Source of the DNA: Streptomyces sp. NRRL S-31
GTDB taxonomy: Bacteria > Actinomycetota > Actinomycetes > Streptomycetales > Streptomycetaceae
Assembly (NCBI RefSeq): GCF_000718775.1
Contig: NZ_JOCB01000055.1
Location: 1 to 63,991, forward strand
Length of the DNA: 63,991 nt
Direction: 5' to 3'
Under the pieces are notes generated by a model. It did not search any database, was not told the DNA's origin, and saw only the letters and a program-made list of their open reading frames with translations. Each line of letters opens with the position of its first letter. Position 1 is the stretch's first letter. Positions 28,703 to 36,998 of the stretch are shown one piece after another. Made by a program: the position numbers and the translations under genes.

Positions 28703-29650
28703 TCAGTTCTTCAGCTCCGGCGGACTGATGCGGGACTCCTTGATCGCGGAACCCGTCGTACCCCACTTCTTCAGGATCTTGTCGTAGGTGCCGTCGGACA
28801 GCAGCTTGTTCACCGCCGCCTGGAAGGCGGGCGCCAGTTTCGTGCCCTTCTTGAAGGCGAAGCCGACGTCCAGGCGGTGGTACTCGTTGAGGAACTTCAG
28901 CCCGTCCTGGTGTGCGACGGCGTAGCGCAGACCGTTGATCGTGGACATCACGATGTCGCTGCGGCCCTGCTGGAGCGAGGGCCAGATCGCGCCCGGCTCG
29001 GCGTACGTCTGCACCTCGTACGCCTTCTTGCCCGCGTCGGTGCACAGGTGCTTGTTCTGCTCCAGCGTGGCCTCGAACGTGGTGCCGGCGTTGGTCGCGA
29101 TGTTCAGGCCGCACAGCTGCTTGAGGTCGGTGATCTTCGAGAGCTTGCTGTCCTTGCGGGTGGCGAAGCCCTGGCCGTCGTTGACGTAGGTGACGAAGTC
29201 GATGGTCTTGCGGCGCTCGTCGGTCACGCCGAAGTTGCTCGCGCCGAAGTCGTACTTGCCACTGTCCAGGGCGGGCAGGATCGCGTCGAAGCTCGCCTGC
29301 TCGACCTTCAGCTCGATGCCGAGCGCCCGCGCGACCGCCTTGGTGAAGTCGACGTCCTGGCCGGTCAGGGTCTTGCCGTCGGCGAGGTAGGTGGTGCCGG
29401 GCGGGGTGCCGCCGACGCTGATCGCGACGGTGAGACGCGTGGTGCCGGCGGGCAGCAGCTTCGCCGCGGCCTCGTCCTTGCGCACGCCGGAGACGACGTC
29501 GGTGGTGGGCGCCTCGGCGTTCTTGGCCGCCACTCCGGAGGCGTCCGTACCGTCCTGACCGCCGGATCCGGAGCCGCAGGCGGTGAGCAGCAGGGCGGCC
29601 GAGGTGATCGTGACAAAGGGCGTGAAATAGCGATAAATGGACGTGCGCAT
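28703..29650 (-). CDS. amino-acid-type ABC transporter substrate-binding lipoprotein
   Basis: The 315-residue protein has a lipoprotein signal with lipobox LLTAC (Cys 25), then the two-lobed family 3 solute-binding fold: TYLADGKTLTGQDVDFTKAVARALG, given as GKTLTGQDVDFTKA and VARALG, and FDAILPALDSGKYDFG. It binds a polar amino acid or similar ligand outside the cell and hands it to the permease and ATPase encoded divergently at 30105 and 32716. A short leader peptide and a hairpin lie between its promoter and its start, pointing to attenuation. Cystine or another sulfur compound is the likely ligand class, by context only. Confidence 0.88.
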   Translation of the reverse strand: MRTSIYRYFTPFVTITSAALLLTACGSGSGGQDGTDASGVAAKNAEAPTTDVVSGVRKDEAAAKLLPAGTTRLTVAISVGGTPPGTTYLADGKTLTGQDVDFTKAVARALGIELKVEQASFDAILPALDSGKYDFGASNFGVTDERRKTIDFVTYVNDGQGFATRKDSKLSKITDLKQLCGLNIATNAGTTFEATLEQNKHLCTDAGKKAYEVQTYAEPGAIWPSLQQGRSDIVMSTINGLRYAVAHQDGLKFLNEYHRLDVGFAFKKGTKLAPAFQAAVNKLLSDGTYDKILKKWGTTGSAIKESRISPPELKN

Positions 29651-29788
29651 CGGGTAGCGGTCTCCTGAAGCAGAGGAAGAGCGGGCGGCGCGAGGGGACG
29701 CGAAGGGACGCGAGGGGAGGGGCGCGTGTGAAGGCTGCTGAGGCTGTGCGGGCTGTGCGGGCGGAGAACAGCGAGAGAACGCGAGTAA

Positions 29789-29807
29789 GCCCGCCGTGAG
29801 GGCGGGC
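29789..29807 (-). terminator. attenuator-like hairpin between leader peptide and substrate-binding gene
   Basis: On the minus strand GCCCGCC, a CTCAC loop and GGCGGGC form a 7-bp GC-only stem, followed by TTACTCGCGTTCTCTCGC, which is pyrimidine-rich. It lies 18 nt downstream of the leader peptide stop and 139 nt before the substrate-binding gene, the usual place for a transcription attenuator. Confidence 0.5.
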
Positions 29808-29824: not shown

Positions 29825-29896
29825 TCAACAGGAAGAGGACCACACGCGACCGAAGTCGATGTGGGAGCGGGTGACCAGCCACTGCTGCGGATGCAT
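29825..29896 (-). CDS. leader peptide of the transporter locus (cysteine-type)
   Basis: This 23-codon gene is too short for ordinary gene finding. Its product contains RSHIDFGRVWSSSC and ends in Cys just before the stop. Actinobacterial leader peptides upstream of sulfur-assimilation and cysteine-related genes share the pattern (R)RHIDL-x-RV followed by C-terminal cysteines. This peptide matches that pattern except that only one Cys is present. A -10 box ends 6 nt before its ATG, so it is probably the very start of the mRNA. Ribosome stalling at the Ser-Ser-Ser-Cys end when cysteine is scarce could control the downstream hairpin. This mechanism is inference. Confidence 0.65.
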   Translation of the reverse strand: MHPQQWLVTRSHIDFGRVWSSSC

Positions 29897-29902
29897 GGCC
29901 CC

Positions 29903-29931
29903 AGTGGAACAGGCATCCGGTTCCGCGTCAA
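29903..29931 (-). promoter_or_regulatory. promoter of the leader peptide and substrate-binding gene, with inverted repeat
   Basis: On the minus strand TTGACG (29926-29931) and TCCACT (29903-29908) are 17 bp apart and predict a start at about 29896, the A of the leader ATG. Between the boxes GGAAC and GTTCC (29906-29924, 9-bp spacer) form an inverted repeat, a candidate operator. Confidence 0.5.
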
Positions 29932-29967
29932 CCGACTTGAGATGTACGGCTCACAGTATGGACAGCC

Positions 29968-29998: not shown

Positions 29999-30104
29999 CG
30001 GTACACGGCCCTGCTGAGGGGCTCGGCCGTACCCGCGCCGCGCGGCGCGCCCGTGTGAAGGCACCACCCCGTATCGACGGTTCGACGCGTCACGGAGCCT
30101 TCGC

Positions 30105-30962
30105 ATGTCTTCCGACACCCTTGCCAAAGTCCCCACCGCATCCGACGTCCCCGAACCCGCGGACGTCCCGCGGATCGTCCCGCAGCGCCGTTACGGCCAG
30201 TGGACGGCGGCCCTCGTCGTCCTCGCGCTGCTCGGGTTCGCGGTCAACTCGGTCCTGCGCAACCAGGCGTTCCAATGGGACGTCGTCGCCGACTACTTCA
30301 CCTCCGACTCCGTCCTGCGCGGACTGTGGCTCACACTGTGGCTGACCGCCGTGGTGATGGTCCTCGGCTTCGCCCTCGGCACCCTGCTCGCCGCGTTCCG
30401 GCTCTCCGCCAACCCCGTGCTGCGGGCGGTCAGCTGGGGCTACGTGTGGCTGTTCCGGTCCATCCCGATCCTGGTGCAGCTGCTGCTGTGGTTCAACATC
30501 GGGGCGCTGTACCCGCAGGTGTTCGGCGTGAAGACGGTCAACCTGCTCAGCCCGGTCGCCGTCGCGATCGTCGGCCTCACCCTGCACGAGGCCGCCTACG
30601 CCGCCGAGGTCGTCCGCGGCGGCATCCTCTCCGTCGACCGCGGGCAGATCGAGGCCGCCCAGGCGCTCGGCCTGAGCCGGTGGCGGCGCTGGTGGCGGAT
30701 CGTGCTGCCGCAGGCGATGCGCTCCATCGTGCCGCCCGCCGGCAACATGCTGATCGGCACCCTCAAGGGCACCTCGATCGTCAGCGTGATCGCCGTCAAC
30801 GACCTGCTGTTCTCCACCCAGTTGATCTACCACCGCACCTACCAGGTGATTCCGCTGCTGATGGTCGCCACCCTCTGGTACGCCGTGGTCACCACCGTGC
30901 TCGGCATCGGCCAGACCTATGTGGAGAAGTACTACGCACGCGGCACGGAGAACGCACGATGA
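30105..30962 (+). CDS. amino-acid-type ABC transporter permease
   Basis: The 285-residue inner-membrane protein has about five helices and the HisM/polar amino-acid permease pattern. The EAA loop that docks the ATPase is EAAQALGLSRWRRWWRIVLP at about residues 184-203, and HEAAYAAEVVRGGILSVDRGQ (given as HEAAYAAEVV and RGGILSVDRGQ) comes just before it. It fuses both roles of such transporters and probably works as a homodimer. Its stop overlaps the next start (ATGA). ATG 30105 is chosen as the first start in the family-like N-terminus. Confidence 0.9.
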   Translation: MSSDTLAKVPTASDVPEPADVPRIVPQRRYGQWTAALVVLALLGFAVNSVLRNQAFQWDVVADYFTSDSVLRGLWLTLWLTAVVMVLGFALGTLLAAFRLSANPVLRAVSWGYVWLFRSIPILVQLLLWFNIGALYPQVFGVKTVNLLSPVAVAIVGLTLHEAAYAAEVVRGGILSVDRGQIEAAQALGLSRWRRWWRIVLPQAMRSIVPPAGNMLIGTLKGTSIVSVIAVNDLLFSTQLIYHRTYQVIPLLMVATLWYAVVTTVLGIGQTYVEKYYARGTENAR

Positions 30963-32719
30963 GACACCAGCTGGTCATCGTGGGAGCCGGTCCGCGGGGG
31001 ACCGGCGTCCTCGAACGCCTCGCCGCCAACGCGCCCGGGCTGTACGAGGGCCCGGGTCTCGACATCCACCTGGTCGACCCCCACCCGCCGGGCGGCGGAC
31101 GCATCTGGCGGCAGGCCCAGTCACCGCTGCTGTGGATGAACTCGCACGCCGAGGACGTCACCATGTACACCGACGAGACGGTGACCATGGAGGGCCCGGT
31201 GCGCGAGGGCCCCACCCTGCACCAGTGGGCCGGACTGGACGCCCGCACCTTTCCCGACCGGCGGATCCAGGGCCGCTATCTGCGCCACGTGTACGAGCGG
31301 GCCCTCGCCGACCTGCCCCCCGGCGTCACCGTCCACCACCACCCGCGGCGCGCCCTGCGGATCGGCGGCCCGCGCGAGGGCCGGCAGCGGGTCTGGCTGG
31401 AGGGCCTGGAGCGACCGCTCCTCGCCGACCTGGTGATCCTCGCCGTGGGCCACCTGGACGCCGAACTCGACCCGGAGCAGACCCGGCTGGCCGAGTACGC
31501 CCGGGAGCACGGCCTGGTGCACCTGCCGCCCGACTTCACCGCCGACAGCGACCTGTCCGCGCTGGAGCCCGGCGAACCCGTCCTCGTCCGCGGCTTCGGC
31601 CTCGCCTTCGTCGACCTGATGGTGCTGCTCACCGAGGGCCGAGGCGGGCGGTACGAGGGGGACACCTACATACCCTCGGGGCGGGAGCCGGTGCTGCACG
31701 TCGGCTCCCGCCGGGGAGTGCCGTACCACTCCAAGATCGGCTACGACTGGACCGGCGACCGGCCCCCGCTGCCCCGTTTCTTCGGCCCCGCCGAGGTGGA
31801 CGGCCTGCTCGCCCGGCCCGGCGGCTTCGACTTCCGGCGCGATGTGTGGCCGCTGGTCGAGAAGGAGCTGGGCTTCGCCCACTACCACCGGCTGTTCACC
31901 GCCCACCCCGGGCGTACGGCGATGGCCTGGGCCGACTTCGAGGAGAAGTACGCGGTGGCCGACGGCCCGGCCGAGATCCGGGCCCTGGTCGCCGCGGCCG
32001 TGCCCGACCCGGCCGACCGGCTCGACCTCGCCGCGCTCGACCACCCGCTGGACGGAGTGCGGTACGCCTCCCACGACGACCTCCAGGCAGGGCTGCGGGC
32101 GTACATCGAGACCGACCTGGACCGCCGTCACGACCCGGAACACAGCCCCGACCTGGGTGTCTTCCTCGGGCTGCTCTCCGTCTACGGGCAACTGGTCCGG
32201 CTCGGGGACATCGGGCCCTGGTGGCACGGGTTCTTCAGCTACCTGGCGTCCGGTCCGCCCGGACCCCGGCTGCGGCAGATGCTCGCGCTGTCCCGGGCCG
32301 GTCTGCTCCGGTTCGTCGGGGCCGGGATGACCGTCACCGCCGAGGACGGCCTCTTCCGGGCCACCAGCCCCACCGTGCCGGGTTCCTCCGTCACGGCCCG
32401 GGCGCTGGTGGAGGCCCGGCTCCCGGCGCCCGCCGTCGGCCGGGCCCGGGACAGCCTGCTGCGCGAACTGCGCGCCGACGGCGCCGCCGAGACCCCCGAC
32501 GGGCTGCTCCGGGTCGACCCCGGCGACGGCCGGATCCTCGACGGCGCCGGCCGCCCGCACCCCCGGCGGTTCGCCCTCGGCCCGTACACCGACAACCGGG
32601 CCCCCGGGGCGTTCACCCGCCCGCGCACGGGCGGCCCCGCGTTCCGGCAGAACGACGCGACCGCCCGGGCGGTGCTGTCCTTCCTGCGCGCCCCCCATGT
32701 AAAGGAACTCCCGCGATGA
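30959..32719 (+). CDS. FAD/NAD(P)-binding protein, possible N-hydroxylating or monooxygenase type
   Basis: The 586-residue protein opens with the dinucleotide motif VIVGAGPRGTGVLERLA, followed by LWMNSHAEDVTMYTDE typical of the FAD_NAD_binding_9 group. The large C-terminal part has no second obvious domain. It lies between permease and ATPase genes, joined to both by 4-bp ATGA overlaps, so it is made with the transporter. This close coupling suggests it processes the imported compound. Whether it is an oxygenase or an oxidase is not clear from sequence. Confidence 0.8.
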   Translation: MRHQLVIVGAGPRGTGVLERLAANAPGLYEGPGLDIHLVDPHPPGGGRIWRQAQSPLLWMNSHAEDVTMYTDETVTMEGPVREGPTLHQWAGLDARTFPDRRIQGRYLRHVYERALADLPPGVTVHHHPRRALRIGGPREGRQRVWLEGLERPLLADLVILAVGHLDAELDPEQTRLAEYAREHGLVHLPPDFTADSDLSALEPGEPVLVRGFGLAFVDLMVLLTEGRGGRYEGDTYIPSGREPVLHVGSRRGVPYHSKIGYDWTGDRPPLPRFFGPAEVDGLLARPGGFDFRRDVWPLVEKELGFAHYHRLFTAHPGRTAMAWADFEEKYAVADGPAEIRALVAAAVPDPADRLDLAALDHPLDGVRYASHDDLQAGLRAYIETDLDRRHDPEHSPDLGVFLGLLSVYGQLVRLGDIGPWWHGFFSYLASGPPGPRLRQMLALSRAGLLRFVGAGMTVTAEDGLFRATSPTVPGSSVTARALVEARLPAPAVGRARDSLLRELRADGAAETPDGLLRVDPGDGRILDGAGRPHPRRFALGPYTDNRAPGAFTRPRTGGPAFRQNDATARAVLSFLRAPHVKELPR

Positions 32720-33477
32720 GCGTCATGGTCGACATCCGGTCGGTGCACAAGAGCTTCGGCTCGCTGAAGGTGCTCAGAGGCATCGACCTCCAGGTCCGCG
32801 CCGGTGAGGTCACCGTCGTGCTCGGCCCCTCCGGCTCCGGCAAGTCCACCCTGCTGCGCACCATCAACCACCTGGAGAAGGTGGACCGGGGGGAGATCAG
32901 CGTGGACGGCGCGCTGATGGGGTACCGGCGGGCCGGGGACAAGCTGTACGAGCTGCCCGAGCGCGAGGTGCTGCGGCAGCGCACCCGGATCGGGTTCGTC
33001 TTCCAGAGCTTCAACCTCTTCCCCCACCTCACCGTCCTGGACAACGTCGTCGAGGCGCCGGTGTCCGCGCGGCGGCGGCCCCGCGCGGCGGCGGTGGAGA
33101 GCGCGCACCGGCTGCTGGAGCGGGTCGGGCTGGCGGACAAGGCCGGCGCCTATCCGCGGCAGCTGTCCGGCGGGCAGCAGCAGCGGGTGGCCATCGCGCG
33201 GGCGCTCGCGCTGGAGCCGAGGCTGCTGCTGTTCGACGAGCCGACGTCGGCACTCGACCCCGAGCTGGTCGGGGAGGTGCTGGACGTCATCCGGGACCTG
33301 GCGGCGCAGGGCACCACGATGATCGTCGTCACGCACGAGATCGCGTTCGCCCGGGAGGTCGCCGACACGGTGGTGTTCATGGCCGACGGACGGATCGTGG
33401 AACAGGGGACGCCGGACGAGGTGCTGGGCGCCCCGCGGCAGGAGCGGACCCGGGCGTTCCTGGCGAAGGTGCTGTGA
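32716..33477 (+). CDS. amino-acid-type ABC transporter ATPase
   Basis: The 253-residue ATPase has Walker A GPSGSGKSTLL, Q-loop FVFQSFNLFPHLT, signature LSGGQQQRVAIARALA, Walker B LLLFDEPTSALD and switch His in VTHEIAFA. FNLFPHLTVLDNV is typical of polar amino-acid importers (GlnQ/HisP/TcyC group). ATG 32716 overlaps the preceding stop. It completes a three-part importer with the permease at 30105 and the divergent binding protein at 28703. A short tandem-repeat region follows. Confidence 0.93.
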   Translation: MSVMVDIRSVHKSFGSLKVLRGIDLQVRAGEVTVVLGPSGSGKSTLLRTINHLEKVDRGEISVDGALMGYRRAGDKLYELPEREVLRQRTRIGFVFQSFNLFPHLTVLDNVVEAPVSARRRPRAAAVESAHRLLERVGLADKAGAYPRQLSGGQQQRVAIARALALEPRLLLFDEPTSALDPELVGEVLDVIRDLAAQGTTMIVVTHEIAFAREVADTVVFMADGRIVEQGTPDEVLGAPRQERTRAFLAKVL

Positions 33478-33786: not shown

Positions 33787-33820
33787 GGTGGTCGGTGGTG
33801 CGGTGGCGTGGGAGGGCCGG

Positions 33821-34900
33821 GTGAGCGGGCGGTTCGGGCGGGGGATGCCGCATCTCGCCGCCGCTCTCGACCAGCCCGGAGTCCTCGACGCCGGGGCGTA
33901 CGTCGAGCTGGCCCGGCTCGCCGAGCGGGGCGGGCTGGACTTCGTGACGCTGGACGACTCCTTCGCCCGGCCCGGGCCGGACGCGCTCGGCGTCCTCAGC
34001 CGGGTGGCGCCCGCGACCCGGCGGATCGGGCTGGTGCCGACGGTCACCACCACCCACACCGAGCCCGTCCAGGTGCAGGCCGCCGTGGCCACCCTGGACT
34101 GGGTCAGCCGGGGCCGGGCCGGCTGGCGGATCGAGGTGTCCACCACCGAGGGGGAGGCCCGGCTGTTCGGCCGCCGGCACGCGGCTCCCGCCGACGCCCT
34201 GTGGCGGGAGGCGGGTGAGGTCGCCGACGTGGCCGGGCGGCTGTGGGACAGCTGGGAGGACGGCGCCGAGATCCGGGACGCGGCCACCGGCCGCTTCCTC
34301 GACCGGGACCGGCTGCACCGCGTCGACTTCACCGGCACCGCCTTCTCGGTCCGCGGTCCGTCCACCGTGCCCCGGCCGCCGCAGGGCCACCCCGTCCGCG
34401 TGGTCGACGCCACCGACGGCGACGCCCGCGCGGTCGCCGCCCGGTACGCGGACGTGGCCCTGGTGCGCGCCACCACCCCCGCCCAGGCCGCCGGCGCCCG
34501 GGAGGACCTGCGGGAGCGGGCACGCGCGTGCGGGCGCGACCCGGGCACGCTGCGGGTCCTGGCGAGCCTGCTGGTCGATCTCGGCGACGGCGAGCACGCG
34601 GCCCAGCCGGGACACGGCGGCGGCGGCCCCCGGCCCACCGTGCGGGGCCCGCTGTACCGGGGCGGCCCGGTGGACCTCGCGGAGCTGGTGGCCGGCTGGC
34701 ACGCCGACGGCGTCACCGACGGCTTCCACCTCGTCCCGGTCGAGCCGCGCCGCGATCTGGAACGGCTGGTCAACGGCACGGTCGCGCTGCTCCAGCACCG
34801 CGGTCTGTTCCGCACCTTCTATCCGGGCGGCACCCTGCGCGAACATCTGGGCCTGGCCCGGCCCGCCAACCGGTACGCCATGACCGGCGGAACGTCATGA
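33821..34900 (+). CDS. luciferase-like flavin-dependent monooxygenase
   Basis: The 359-residue protein is a TIM-barrel LLM oxidoreductase. LARLAERGGLDFVTLDDSF, VAPATRRIGLVPTVTTTHTEP and VSRGRAGWRIEVSTTEGEA are conserved blocks of the NtaA/SnaA/DszA group, which use reduced FMN supplied by another protein to split C-S or C-N bonds. GTG 33821 is chosen because GGGAGG lies about 8 nt upstream; the longer start at 33788 falls in the repeat. Its end carries a 17-bp duplication that also supplies the next gene's ribosome site. Confidence 0.82.
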   Translation: MSGRFGRGMPHLAAALDQPGVLDAGAYVELARLAERGGLDFVTLDDSFARPGPDALGVLSRVAPATRRIGLVPTVTTTHTEPVQVQAAVATLDWVSRGRAGWRIEVSTTEGEARLFGRRHAAPADALWREAGEVADVAGRLWDSWEDGAEIRDAATGRFLDRDRLHRVDFTGTAFSVRGPSTVPRPPQGHPVRVVDATDGDARAVAARYADVALVRATTPAQAAGAREDLRERARACGRDPGTLRVLASLLVDLGDGEHAAQPGHGGGGPRPTVRGPLYRGGPVDLAELVAGWHADGVTDGFHLVPVEPRRDLERLVNGTVALLQHRGLFRTFYPGGTLREHLGLARPANRYAMTGGTS

Positions 34901-34913: not shown

Positions 34914-36194
34914 ATGACCGTACGACGGCGGCTGTGCCTGGCGGTCCTGTCGCCGGGGTCCGACCGGACCGGGGCGGAGACCGACGGCACCGCGTGGGCC
35001 GGGGAGCGGGCCGGCGCGCGGCTCGCCTTCGCCGGGTTCGAGCGGCTCGCCCGCACCGCCGAGCGCGGGCTGTTCGACTTCCTGCTGCTCGACGAGGAAC
35101 CGCCGCTGCCCGAGCACCGGGGGCGGCTGCACGAACTGGACCCGGTGGGCGGGCCGGAGCCGGTCGCCGTACTGAACGCGCTCGCCGGGGTCACCACCCG
35201 GCTGGGGCTCGCCGCCACGGTGAACGCCGTCCACGGGGAGCCGTACGAGCTGGCCCGCAGGCTGGCCACCCTCGACCACCTCAGCGCGGGCCGGGCCGGC
35301 TGGCGGGTGGCGGTCCCGGCGGACGTCCGCACCGGCGCGGACCACCGCGCGGGGAGCCACTTCGACCCCTTCGGCCGGGCCGCCGAACTCGTGACGGTGG
35401 TACGGAGGTTGTGGGACTCCTGGAGCCCCGACGGAGTGCCGCGGCCGTTCGCGTACCGCGGCCGGCACTTCGACATCGCGGGCGAGTTCGGGCTGCCCCG
35501 CTCGCCCCAGGGGCAGCCCGTGGTGATCCGGTCGGGGGACTCCGAGCGGGCCCGGGAGCTGGCCGCGGCCTCGGCCGACGTCCTGCTCGCCCGGCACGCC
35601 CCGCTGGAGACGGCCCGCGCCCGCTACACCGACGTCAAGCGCCGGCTCGCGGCGCACGGCCGTGCCCCGCGGGACCTGAGGGTCATGCCCCGGATCACCG
35701 TCGTCCTCGGGGACACAGCGGCCGAGGCGCAGGAGCGGGCCGCCGGGATCAGACGGCGGCGGATCACCCCGGGCCTCGCGCTGTACGCGCTGGAGCGGGT
35801 CTGGGGCACGGACCTCTCCGGGTACGACCCCGACGGCCCGTTGCCGGCGACCGCGCCCGGCACCCGGGACGGCCGGGTCCTCGCGCTCGCCGAGCGGTGG
35901 CGGGCGCTGTCCGCGGAGAAGGGGCTCTCCATCCGGGAGACCGTGATCGAGGCGAGCGGCCGGCAGTCCTTCGTCGGCACGCCCGACTCGGTCGCCGCCG
36001 ACCTGCACCGGTACGCCGGCGAGGGGGCCGCCGACGGTTTCGTCCTGGTCCCCGGAGATCCGGCCGACGGGCTGGAGGAGTTCGTGGACCGGGTGGTGCC
36101 GCTGCTCCAGGAGCGCGGTGCCTTCCGCACGGAGTACCGGGGCGGCACGCTCCGCTCCCACCTCGGACTGTCCCACCCGGAACGGGAGACCTGA
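34914..36194 (+). CDS. luciferase-like flavin-dependent monooxygenase, larger paralogue
   Basis: The 426-residue LLM protein has the NtaA/SnaA/DszA features: FERLARTAERGLFDFLLLDE, VTTRLGLAATVNAVHGEPYE (20 residues) and LDHLSAGRAGWRVAVP, plus a late insertion before the C-terminal helices. ATG 34914 has GGGGGAAC just upstream in the duplicated segment. The two LLM genes differ enough not to be a recent copy of each other. Together with the transporter and FAD protein they may oxidise an imported organosulfur compound; this is inferred from context. Confidence 0.85.
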   Translation: MTVRRRLCLAVLSPGSDRTGAETDGTAWAGERAGARLAFAGFERLARTAERGLFDFLLLDEEPPLPEHRGRLHELDPVGGPEPVAVLNALAGVTTRLGLAATVNAVHGEPYELARRLATLDHLSAGRAGWRVAVPADVRTGADHRAGSHFDPFGRAAELVTVVRRLWDSWSPDGVPRPFAYRGRHFDIAGEFGLPRSPQGQPVVIRSGDSERARELAAASADVLLARHAPLETARARYTDVKRRLAAHGRAPRDLRVMPRITVVLGDTAAEAQERAAGIRRRRITPGLALYALERVWGTDLSGYDPDGPLPATAPGTRDGRVLALAERWRALSAEKGLSIRETVIEASGRQSFVGTPDSVAADLHRYAGEGAADGFVLVPGDPADGLEEFVDRVVPLLQERGAFRTEYRGGTLRSHLGLSHPERET

Positions 36195-36215
36195 CAGATG
36201 AAAGGAACGGAAGAG

Positions 36216-36998
36216 ATGACGACGGACGCACCCGATGCCTGGAAGCGGTGGCACGAACGGCGTGTGGAGACGGCCTCGGCACCCTACGGACTGCTCGCGC
36301 TGACCGGGACGCACTGGATCGAGGACTACCCGGATGGCCGACTTCCGGCCATTCCCGGGGTCTGGGTGGCCGAAGAGGACGCGGTGGTGCTCACCGCCAC
36401 CGAGGCCGACGGCCTGACCGTGGCCGGCCGGCCCCTCTCCGGCGAGGTCAGACTGACCGCCGACCACGGCCCGGAGGCCGAGGCGCGGGTCGCGCTCGGC
36501 GCGAAGCGGTTGGTCGTCCTGGTGCGCGAGGGCGTGTGGGGCGTGCGGGTCTACGACCCCGAGTCCGCCGCCCGGCGGGCCTTCCGGGGCATCGAGGCCG
36601 AGCCCTACGACCCGCGCTGGTCGGTGCCGGGCCGGTTCACGCCGTACGAGGGCACGCGCACCGTGCGGCTCGGCAACGCCGACGGCCGGGAACGCGGCTT
36701 CGAGCTGGCCGGTGAGCTGACCTTCACGCTGGCCGGCCGGGAGCGGACGCTGAAGGTCGCGCGGCCGGAGGGCGGGGCGCTGTGGGCGGTGTTCGCCGAC
36801 GCCACCAGCGGCGACACGAGCTTCCGGTTCCGCTTCCTCTTCTCGCCGTCCCCGGACGCCGAGGGGCGTACGACCGTCGACTTCAACCGCGCCCAGCTCC
36901 CGCCGTGCGCCTTCGCCGACCACTTCCTCTGCCCCTTCCCGCCGCCCGGCAACACGCTGGACGCGGCGATCGAGGCGGGGGAGCGCCGGCTGGGCTGA
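36216..36998 (+). CDS. DUF1684 domain protein
   Basis: The 260-residue protein is a single DUF1684 domain: WKRWHERRVETASAPYGLLA at the start, YDPRWSVPGRFTPYEGTRTV in the middle, and the conserved C-terminal run DFNRAQLPPCAFADHFLCPFPPPGN, split as DFNRAQLPPCAFADHF and LCPFPPPGN. The biochemical role of DUF1684 is not established. The Cys, His and Phe-rich C-terminus suggests a binding site. It is the last gene of the operon, 21 bp after the LLM gene. ATG 36198 is an alternative start that also has a ribosome site. Confidence 0.78.
   Translation: MTTDAPDAWKRWHERRVETASAPYGLLALTGTHWIEDYPDGRLPAIPGVWVAEEDAVVLTATEADGLTVAGRPLSGEVRLTADHGPEAEARVALGAKRLVVLVREGVWGVRVYDPESAARRAFRGIEAEPYDPRWSVPGRFTPYEGTRTVRLGNADGRERGFELAGELTFTLAGRERTLKVARPEGGALWAVFADATSGDTSFRFRFLFSPSPDAEGRTTVDFNRAQLPPCAFADHFLCPFPPPGNTLDAAIEAGERRLG

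What the first reader, a model, noticed from the sequence alone, without database searches (positions are those of the whole stretch)
29825..29896. Unannotated leader peptide, probably leaderless and cysteine-type, ahead of a substrate-binding protein
A 23-codon gene encodes RSHIDFGRVWSSSC and ends in Cys. The sequence resembles the RRHIDL-x-RV leader peptides found upstream of sulfur-assimilation genes in actinobacteria. A TTGACG-17-TCCACT promoter predicts transcription starting exactly at its ATG, with a GC-only hairpin 18 nt after its stop. Together these look like an attenuation switch for a transporter whose substrate is not annotated.
Basis: partly seen in the sequence, partly recalled or inferred. 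Interest (0 to 1): 0.75.

Follow-up and report, generated by a model that had tools for sequence, protein, structure and literature searches.

The report
Cysteine leader peptide outlasting its gene
A tiny conserved Streptomyces gene that probably senses cysteine sits ahead of a nutrient-uptake gene, and in many species it stays in place where that uptake gene is missing, so it probably controls something else as well.

Summary
The 23-codon frame at 29825-29896(-) is real and of the known actinobacterial cysteine-leader kind, but a divergent member (21.7 bits against a cut-off of 45 for NCBI's Ms4527A family). It precedes the substrate-binding-protein (SBP) gene in 34 of 34 close Streptomyces orthologues. 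Six other leaders in this genome precede cysteine-synthesis, sulfonate, sulfatase and ABC-transport genes. A cysteine/sulfur role is well supported; leaderless start and cysteine response remain predictions.

In 121 Streptomyces genomes the leader lies within 2.5 kb of the divergent FAD-protein gene in 60 of 60 genomes that have it, including 16 without an SBP hit. In 18 mapped loci the leader stands without its gene; in 17 the next mapped gene is convergent. One locus keeps a clear SBP remnant, another a weak one. A C-rich stretch after the leader is kept in 15 of these 18. Codons 11-19 can form a UUCG hairpin, and the last Cys codon is UGU in 89 of 89 loci.

Likeliest: a cysteine-responsive leader RNA that controls the SBP in cis and also serves the divergent operon by an unknown route. 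Pairing with that operon's mRNA was tested and not supported.

The parts
29825..29896 (-). leader ORF MHPQQWLVTRSHIDFGRVWSSSC*, final Cys codon TGT
   Evidence: present in 34/34 close SBP orthologues and in 18 mapped loci without the SBP gene
29840..29864 (-). third base of codon 11 to codon 19, able to form the RNA hairpin CCACAU-CGAC-(UUCG)-GUCG-N-GUGUGG; N is the wobble base of the Arg codon
   Evidence: 15 sequence variants from 89 loci, -8.9 to -12.3 kcal/mol alone; wobble base C40/A32/G9/T8 while the Gly codon is GGT in 88/89. In the whole 5'UTR its probability averages 0.88 over 50 loci but is only 0.18 in the window
29926..29931 (-). -35-like box TTGACG
   Evidence: TTGAC 35-36 nt before the ATG in 81 of 88 loci
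29903..29908 (-). -10-like box TCCACT, 6 nt before the ATG (predicted leaderless start)
29938..29955 (-). conserved near-palindrome TGTGAGCCGTACATCTCA just upstream of the -35 box; possible operator
   Evidence: only match of TGTGAGNNGTANNTCTCA in the genome at <=1 mismatch
29789..29807 (-). GC-only hairpin GCCCGCC-CTCAC-GGCGGGC, possible attenuator
   Evidence: altered but still paired stems in e.g. L028 and L036; about as frequent in loci without the SBP (7/23 against 27/66, p=0.46)
29709..29735 (-). C-rich element GCCTTCACACGCGCCCCTCCCCTCGCG
   Evidence: CCCTCCCCTC in 15/18 loci without the SBP gene (0.1 expected in shuffles) and 53/65 with it (0.7 expected)
28703..29650 (-). ABC substrate-binding protein, family 3 (cis target)
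   Evidence: PF00497; NCBIfam matches include Lys/Arg/Orn and cystine SBPs, all below cut-off
30105..30962 (+). amino-acid-type ABC permease, first gene of the divergent operon
30959..32719 (+). FAD-NAD(P)-binding protein (NAD_binding_9); the gene with which the leader travels
   Evidence: PF13454; leader within 2.5 kb in 60/60 genomes that have it
32716..33477 (+). ABC ATPase, EhuA/TcyN-like (below those cut-offs)
33788..34900 (+). LLM flavin monooxygenase, NtaA/DmoA-like (below the cut-off)
34914..36194 (+). LLM flavin monooxygenase over the TIGR03860 cut-off; closest solved sequence is YtnJ
36198..36998 (+). DUF1684 protein
30005..30030 (+). conserved hairpin-like island near the predicted 5' end of the divergent mRNA, loop CTGCTGAGGGGCTC
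   Evidence: not tested by covariation
30052..30062 (-). second copy of GCCTTCACACG, in the presumed 5'UTR of the divergent mRNA
   Evidence: covariation with the copy at 29725-29735 not significant

Best explanation
This is a cysteine-sensing leader ORF of the actinobacterial RxH[IV]D[LF]xR kind, on a locus that probably scavenges organic sulfur (amino-acid-type ABC transporter plus LLM flavin monooxygenases). Its mRNA probably starts at the ATG (predicted). When Cys-tRNA is short, a ribosome should slow at the terminal UGU codon; this would change folding of the RNA after the stop and let the downstream SBP be expressed (inferred from family membership). The RNA also does a second job that does not need the SBP, most likely for the divergently transcribed operon, because leader, promoter and C-rich element persist where the SBP is absent (persistence shown; target and route inferred).
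For: Family and setting: NF042936 match E=1.1e-4. Six other leaders in the same genome precede sulfite reductase with a cysH/C/D/N-like run, a ThiS protein plus a PALP enzyme, an FMN reductase plus LLM monooxygenase, a sulfatase, an ABC permease, and a GST-like gene followed by an amino-acid ABC transporter. Conservation: 34/34 close orthologues. Codon: the leader's last Cys is TGT in 89/89 loci; at the matching SxxC place of other family leaders TGT in 27/27, while other Cys codons of the same peptides are TGC 21, TGT 4, and background genes 250 TGT of 1595. Second job: leader in 60/60 genomes with the FAD gene, within 2.5 kb and on the opposite strand in 59, and in 19/61 without it; 16 of the 60 have no SBP hit, and 14 of those 16 loci were fetched and show none beside the leader. 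In 17 of 18 mapped loci without the gene the next mapped gene is convergent; an SBP remnant in L136 (E=1e-13), and weakly L122 (E=0.05), points to loss. 14 changes on the FAD tree, at least 7 forced by well-supported branches. C-rich element kept in 15/18.
Against: No expression, translation or cysteine-response data. The peptide fails the curated cut-off of NF042936 and is not listed for NF042934. It usually has a single Cys, not a run. The distinct-codon test gives only a modest excess of synonymous change (13 of 38 variants against 0.23 expected). The GC hairpin lacks a good U-run and is about as frequent in loci without the SBP (7/23) as with it (27/66, p=0.46), so it is not specific to the cis gene. 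The leader hairpin has probability 0.18 in the window's own 5'UTR fold. SD pairing is not above shuffles. RNA pairing with the divergent mRNA shows no cognate preference and no significant covariation (p=0.13). The tree is of the FAD protein, not of species, and its 14 changes are close to shuffled labels (15.7), so regain by transfer is not excluded. Some losses may be recent, so retention could in part be inertia.
Confidence: 0.7

Rival explanations
1. Plain cis attenuator of the SBP only. Leaders without the gene are leftovers of recent SBP losses and will decay.
For: Several leaders without the gene are single tips near SBP-bearing relatives on the FAD tree, e.g. L125 beside L045, and L100. 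In L105 and L112 the hairpin after the stop is practically gone, and in L140-L143 and L146 the frame runs on past the Cys.
Against: Leader core present in 18 such loci, with FAD-tree tip branches up to 0.4 changes per site. The C-rich element is kept in 15/18 against 0.1 expected. Leader present in 16/16 genomes with FAD but without an SBP hit. The hairpin is not rarer overall in loci without the SBP.
Confidence: 0.25
2. A DNA-level control region shared by the two divergent promoters (palindrome 29938-29955, repeated GCCTTCACACG) is what selection keeps; the ORF is carried along.
For: Palindrome and repeats are conserved islands; the palindrome is unique in the genome. The leader stays next to the FAD operon in 60/60 genomes.
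Against: Does not explain conservation of leader codons, the UGU Cys codon (89/89) or the C-rich element on the far side of the leader.
Confidence: 0.15
3. Route for the second job, trans-acting small RNA: the C-rich element pairs with the 5'UTR of the divergent mRNA (CCUUCACACG with CGUGUGAAGG, CCCCUC with GAGGGG in a hairpin loop).
For: Both complements occur in antiparallel order; mean z against shuffled RNA -1.2, below -2 in 16 of 51.
Against: Cognate pairs no better than non-cognate (-76.8 against -76.1 kcal/mol); covariation p=0.13. Direct DNA repeats would give the same complementarity.
Confidence: 0.15
4. Route for the second job, the 23-residue peptide itself acts in trans.
For: Residues 12-14, 16-20 and 23 are invariant in the 73 leaders of 24 codons; translation would be needed also in loci without the SBP gene.
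Against: The same codons can also build the RNA hairpin, so peptide conservation can be RNA conservation; no peptide has been detected.
Confidence: 0.1

Closest known systems
Ms4527A / polycysteine leaderless sORFs of mycobacteria (NCBIfam NF042936; Canestrari 2020, not held, known here only through passages in PMC9094748, PMC9031893 and PMC13236596)
   Same: short ORF, alignable RxH[IV]D core, Cys at the end, predicted leaderless start, sulfur genes downstream
   Different: usually one Cys instead of a run; score below the curated cut-off; also kept where no gene follows
NCBIfam NF042934 cis_reg_atten 'putative leader peptide'
   Same: five of six other leaders in this genome pass its cut-off and share the R-x-H-[IV]-D-L-x-R core
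   Different: the window peptide is not listed for that model
cys-operon leader candidates of Seliverstov 2005 (PMC1262725, passages) and Shell 2015 (PMC4633059, passages)
   Same: candidate leaders with cysteine codons near the stop; Seliverstov saw no conserved terminator
   Different: those are in Mycobacterium, P. acnes and B. longum, with runs or clusters of Cys codons
rnTrpL/peTrpL of Sinorhizobium meliloti (PMC7298713, start of abstract in a search listing only)
   Same: an attenuator leader peptide with a role beyond its own operon
   Different: there the leader peptide takes part in regulating a multidrug resistance operon; here the cis gene can be absent and the second target is only inferred
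CmoO/CmoJ S-alkyl cysteine salvage (PMC10863075, start of abstract in a search listing only; that CmoJ is YtnJ is recalled)
   Same: LLM monooxygenase closest in sequence to YtnJ beside an amino-acid-type ABC transporter
   Different: substrate here unknown; the extra FAD-NAD(P)-binding protein has no assigned role

Membership tests
Actinobacterial Cys leader peptides (NF042936 / NF042934) | score at or above the curated cut-off | tested here: not met
   NF042936 21.7 bits against 45; NF042934 not listed for it
Actinobacterial Cys leader peptides (NF042936 / NF042934) | RxH[IV]D[LF]xR core | tested here: met
   RSHIDFGR; profile positions 3-19 of 21 aligned
Actinobacterial Cys leader peptides (NF042936 / NF042934) | Cys codon(s) near the stop | tested here: met
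   last codon before the stop is TGT; TGT at this place in 89/89 loci
Actinobacterial Cys leader peptides (NF042936 / NF042934) | placed before sulfur or cysteine genes | tested here: met
   SBP of a transporter locus with LLM monooxygenases; substrate unknown
Polycysteine attenuators of mycobacteria | run of contiguous Cys codons | tested here: not met
   one Cys in the window; a second Cys (WSCSC) in 15 of 73 24-codon leaders
Polycysteine attenuators of mycobacteria | leaderless transcription start | not testable with these tools
   only predicted from TTGAC spacing
Polycysteine attenuators of mycobacteria | expression of the downstream gene depends on cysteine | not testable with these tools
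   needs a reporter or RNA-seq
Classical transcription attenuator | terminator hairpin with U-run | tested here: inconclusive
   hairpin enriched (27/66 at p<=0.05), median 4 T in the next 12 nt
Classical transcription attenuator | alternative antiterminator pairing | tested here: inconclusive
   in the window's best fold CGCGUGUG of the leader pairs with CACACGCG downstream, but the Arg wobble base does not covary with that stretch
Translation attenuator | SD of the target gene sequestered | tested here: not met
   SD paired 0.933 against 0.894 (sd 0.127) in shuffled UTRs, 50 loci
Trans-acting attenuator sRNA (rnTrpL-like) | conserved, covarying pairing with a target mRNA | tested here: inconclusive
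   complementarity present; covariation p=0.13; cognate not better than non-cognate

The most novel reading that the evidence does not exclude
The leader is a self-standing, cysteine-responsive regulatory RNA (sORF plus UUCG hairpin plus C-rich tail) that serves the divergent sulfur-salvage operon. The SBP is an optional client, so the switch outlives the gene it was thought to control: an attenuator leader that has become, or always was, an independent regulator.
Probability: 0.35. Interest if true: 0.8.

Novelty: new variant of a known kind. Interest (0 to 1): 0.5.

Why it matters
Attenuator leaders are normally seen as cis switches that live and die with their operon. Here there is a natural comparison, related species that carry or lack the cis gene, to ask whether a leader peptide or RNA has a function of its own. 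The position-specific UGU codon (27 of 27 in other family leaders; 89 of 89 here) gives a simple test of how Cys starvation is read. It also ties an unassigned transporter/monooxygenase locus to cysteine supply.

Tried and rejected
Leader hairpin arm pairing with the downstream CACACGCG: it is the best fold in the window, but not a covarying pair, since the Arg wobble base varies freely while CACACGCG stays.

RNA-RNA pairing of leader and divergent mRNA: complementarity exists, but duplex energies (51 representatives of 58 loci that have both elements) and covariation (54 of 89 loci passed the motif scores, the other 35 were dropped) do not support it.

C-rich element as anti-SD for the SBP: pairing with it has mean probability 0.05 in 50 loci (53 loci looked at, 3 without GGAG), partners are mixed, and overall SD pairing is not above shuffles.

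The idea that the GC hairpin belongs to SBP control alone: dropped, because it is about as frequent without the SBP (7/23) as with it (27/66).

Rfam: no family at gathering score in the window.

Other sense ORFs as clients of the 18 leaders that lack the SBP gene: ten ORFs of 30 aa or more in nine loci, one (L130) with an SD-like string; none recurs by position.

The distinct-codon test alone is weak evidence for translation; the peptide and the RNA hairpin constrain the same bases and I could not separate them.

Counts to read with care: loci L014-L047 were found through the SBP, so they have it by construction; several are the same species as G-handle loci, and identical regions, contig edges and ORFs without HID[FL]GRVW were removed before (89 loci kept). 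The 60 regions were chosen (best E-values plus a choice of weaker ones) and one (L152), not all hits. Of 26 leader-like ORFs without a nearby sense SBP, 18 stand without a client gene, 2 are inverted (L123, L148), 2 precede an LLM monooxygenase (L139, L149) and 4 (L147_1, L151_1, L153_0, L153_1) are of another type or unclassified. Searches scored at most 18 and 11 candidates per genome, so an absent hit is not proof of absence; of the 16 genomes with FAD but no SBP hit, G048 and G096 were not fetched. At E<=10 the NF042936 search also rings in 9 of 14 control genomes; at E<=0.01 in none.

Full report
What is there. On the minus strand, 29896 to 29825 encodes MHPQQWLVTRSHIDFGRVWSSSC*. A TTGACG box starts 35 nt before the ATG, with a weak -10 (TCCACT) 17 nt further and 6 nt before the ATG. 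After the stop come 17 nt, then GCCCGCC-CTCAC-GGCGGGC, then a pyrimidine-rich stretch with GCCTTCACACGCGCCCCTCCCCTCGCG, then AGGAG and the SBP gene at 29650.

Family. hmmscan against NCBIfam gives leader_Ms4527A (NF042936) at E=1.1e-4, 21.7 bits against a cut-off of 45. The genome has six more leaders with H[IV]DLxR. Their downstream genes, by Pfam and by reading the translations, are: sulfite reductase followed by cysH/cysC/cysD/cysN-like genes; a ThiS-family protein plus a PALP enzyme (cysO/cysM-like); FMN reductase plus LLM monooxygenase; a sulfatase; an ABC permease that looks like SsuC; and a GST-like gene followed by an amino-acid ABC transporter. The cys, cysO/cysM and SsuC names are my readings of the sequence, recalled, not tool calls. 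Five of these six pass NF042934 'putative leader peptide'; the window peptide is not listed for it. NF042936-like leaders occur in 61 of 61 Streptomycetaceae genomes, 17 of 17 genera, at E<=0.01 and in 0 of 14 control genomes, none over the cut-off; at E<=10 the controls ring in 9 of 14. So the kind is known and general; this peptide is a divergent member.

Setting. The SBP is family 3 (PF00497). The divergent operon has a permease, an FAD-NAD(P)-binding protein (PF13454), an EhuA/TcyN-like ATPase, two LLM monooxygenases and a DUF1684 protein. The second LLM protein is closest among solved sequences to YtnJ. Two flavoenzymes, CmoO and CmoJ, act in S-alkyl cysteine salvage (PMC10863075, abstract start in the listing; that CmoJ is YtnJ is recalled). 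The substrate here is unknown; an organic sulfur compound is the natural guess.

Conservation. Of 44 loci, the 34 close Streptomyces SBP orthologues L014-L047 all carry the leader upstream; the ten distant ones do not. The end reads WSSSC, WSCSC or WSASC in 33 of the 34 (L046 ends WSAACRG). In an alignment of 89 distinct loci (66 with SBP, 23 without) the conserved blocks are parts of the divergent 5'UTR, both promoters, a palindrome TGTGAGCCGTACATCTCA that is unique in the genome, the leader, a short post-stop stretch and the C-rich element. The hairpin after the stop is enriched over shuffles: 27 of 66 SBP-bearing loci and 7 of 23 others at p<=0.05 (no difference between the groups, p=0.46), with changed but still paired stems, e.g. 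GCCTGCC/GGCAGGC in L036, and with few U after it.

RNA inside the codons. Codons 11-19 can fold as CCACAU-CGAC-(UUCG)-GUCG-N-GUGUGG. Over 89 loci the Gly codon is GGT in 88 (GGT is 1763 of 22537 Gly codons in the genes mapped in these loci), the Val codon GTG in 89, and within codons 12-19 the only freely varying base is N, the Arg wobble base, which is bulged or next to the bulge. Phe-to-Leu variants (TTC to CTC, 8 loci) change the loop to CUCG, which stays in the YNMG class (recalled). The invariance of CAC, ATC and GAC alone says little in a genome this rich in GC. In folds of the whole 5'UTR the hairpin has mean probability 0.88 over 50 loci but 0.18 in the window, where the best fold pairs CGCGUGUG with the downstream CACACGCG instead. 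The last Cys codon is TGT in 89 of 89. Of 35 loci of other family leaders, 27 distinct peptides have a Cys at the matching SxxC place, 2 (L001, L174) lack it and 6 gave none or a duplicate; the codon is TGT in 27 of 27, while other Cys in the same peptides are TGC 21, TGT 4; background TGT is 250 of 1595. The 27 are not independent, so the binomial p of 2e-22 overstates it, but the position effect is clear.

Outliving the gene. In 121 Streptomyces genomes the leader (E<=0.01) is in 79, the SBP (E<=1e-60) in 50, the FAD protein (E<=1e-100) in 60. Put together: the leader is in all 60 FAD genomes, within 2.5 kb of the gene in 60 and on the opposite strand in 59, and in 19 of 61 other genomes; it is in 49 of 50 SBP genomes (G012 lacks it). 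Sixteen FAD genomes have no SBP hit; in each the leader lies beside the FAD gene, divergent in 15 and turned to face it in one (G036, L148). Fourteen of these 16 were fetched and show no sense SBP beside the leader; G048 and G096 were not fetched. Gene maps of 94 loci gave 96 leader-like ORFs: 70 with a sense SBP within 2.5 kb and 26 without, of which 18 stand without a client gene (three of these 18 genomes, G017, G028 and G055, have an SBP elsewhere). In 17 of the 18 the next mapped gene is convergent (12 query proteins were mapped); in L122 it is sepF, sense, 606 nt away. L136 holds a broken SBP remnant (E=1e-13) and L122 a weak C-terminal match (E=0.05), so there the SBP was probably lost. 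A FAD tree of 79 rows (17 without SBP: 16 of the 18, plus L148) needs 14 changes of state, at least 7 forced by well-supported branches; shuffled labels need 15.7, so the state is scattered over the tree. In the 18 loci CCCTCCCCTC is found after the leader in 15 (0.1 expected) and CTTCACAC in 14 (0.4 expected); with the SBP, 53 and 40 of 65. I read this as selection on leader and C-rich element that does not depend on the SBP.

What the second job is. Best candidate: the divergent operon. In L148 and L123 the leader segment is inverted and lies upstream, in sense, of FAD/LLM or LLM1/DUF1684 genes; in L139 and L149 a related leader lies upstream of near-identical LLM monooxygenases (L139: alkanesulfonate-monooxygenase-like, E about 1e-62 but below the cut-off). 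A direct repeat GCCTTCACACG flanks the leader (29725-29735, 30052-30062; 4 places in the genome), making leader RNA and divergent mRNA complementary. Duplex energies do not prefer cognate partners and covariation is not significant, so this route is open, not shown.

Literature. Seliverstov 2005 (PMC1262725, passages) proposed cys leaders in Mycobacterium, P. acnes and B. longum without conserved terminators; Shell 2015 (PMC4633059, passages) saw ribosome occupancy of a Cys-ending uORF in M. smegmatis; Canestrari 2020 could not be read and is known here through citing passages. The S. lividans reannotation (PMC8079986, passages) lists eight leader peptides, none for cysteine. Among the rows shown by searches (20 of 36; 10 of 10; 15 of 39; 10 of 10; 14 of 14; 5 of 5) I saw no title or abstract start on a Streptomyces cysteine leader or on a leader kept without its gene; most subscription papers are not held.

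Verdict. Interest 0.5 as it stands; higher if the independent role is shown.

Noticed in passing
window 29938-29955 (-): Near-palindrome TGTGAGCCGTACATCTCA between the divergent promoters, conserved in the alignment and unique in the genome at <=1 mismatch; a likely operator for an unknown regulator.
   Followed up: partly
other family leaders, loci L002, L003, L005-L007, L159-L187: The Cys at the SxxC place is coded TGT in 27 of 27 leaders, against TGC 21 to TGT 4 for other Cys in the same peptides.
   Followed up: partly
L123, L148: The leader segment is inverted relative to both flanks and now faces the LLM/FAD operon in sense; the flanking direct repeat does not explain a simple inversion.
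   Followed up: no
L071, L081, L083, L092: The convergent neighbour gene (DUF5685-like, recalled name) ends in a strikingly Cys-rich tail, next to a cysteine leader.
   Followed up: no
L147, L151, L153: A second leader of the LLTSRRHID[FL]GRT type points the other way in the same fetched region, so more of the locus may be under cysteine leaders.
   Followed up: no
window 30005-30030 (+): Strongly conserved hairpin-like island (ACGGCC-CTGCTGAGGGGCTC-GGCCGT) near the predicted 5' end of the divergent mRNA.
   Followed up: partly
L121, L130, L140, L146: These loci without the sense SBP carry a distant SBP (29-32% identity) and permease (46-49%) inside the divergent operon, so the transporter was apparently replaced while the leader stayed.
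   Followed up: partly
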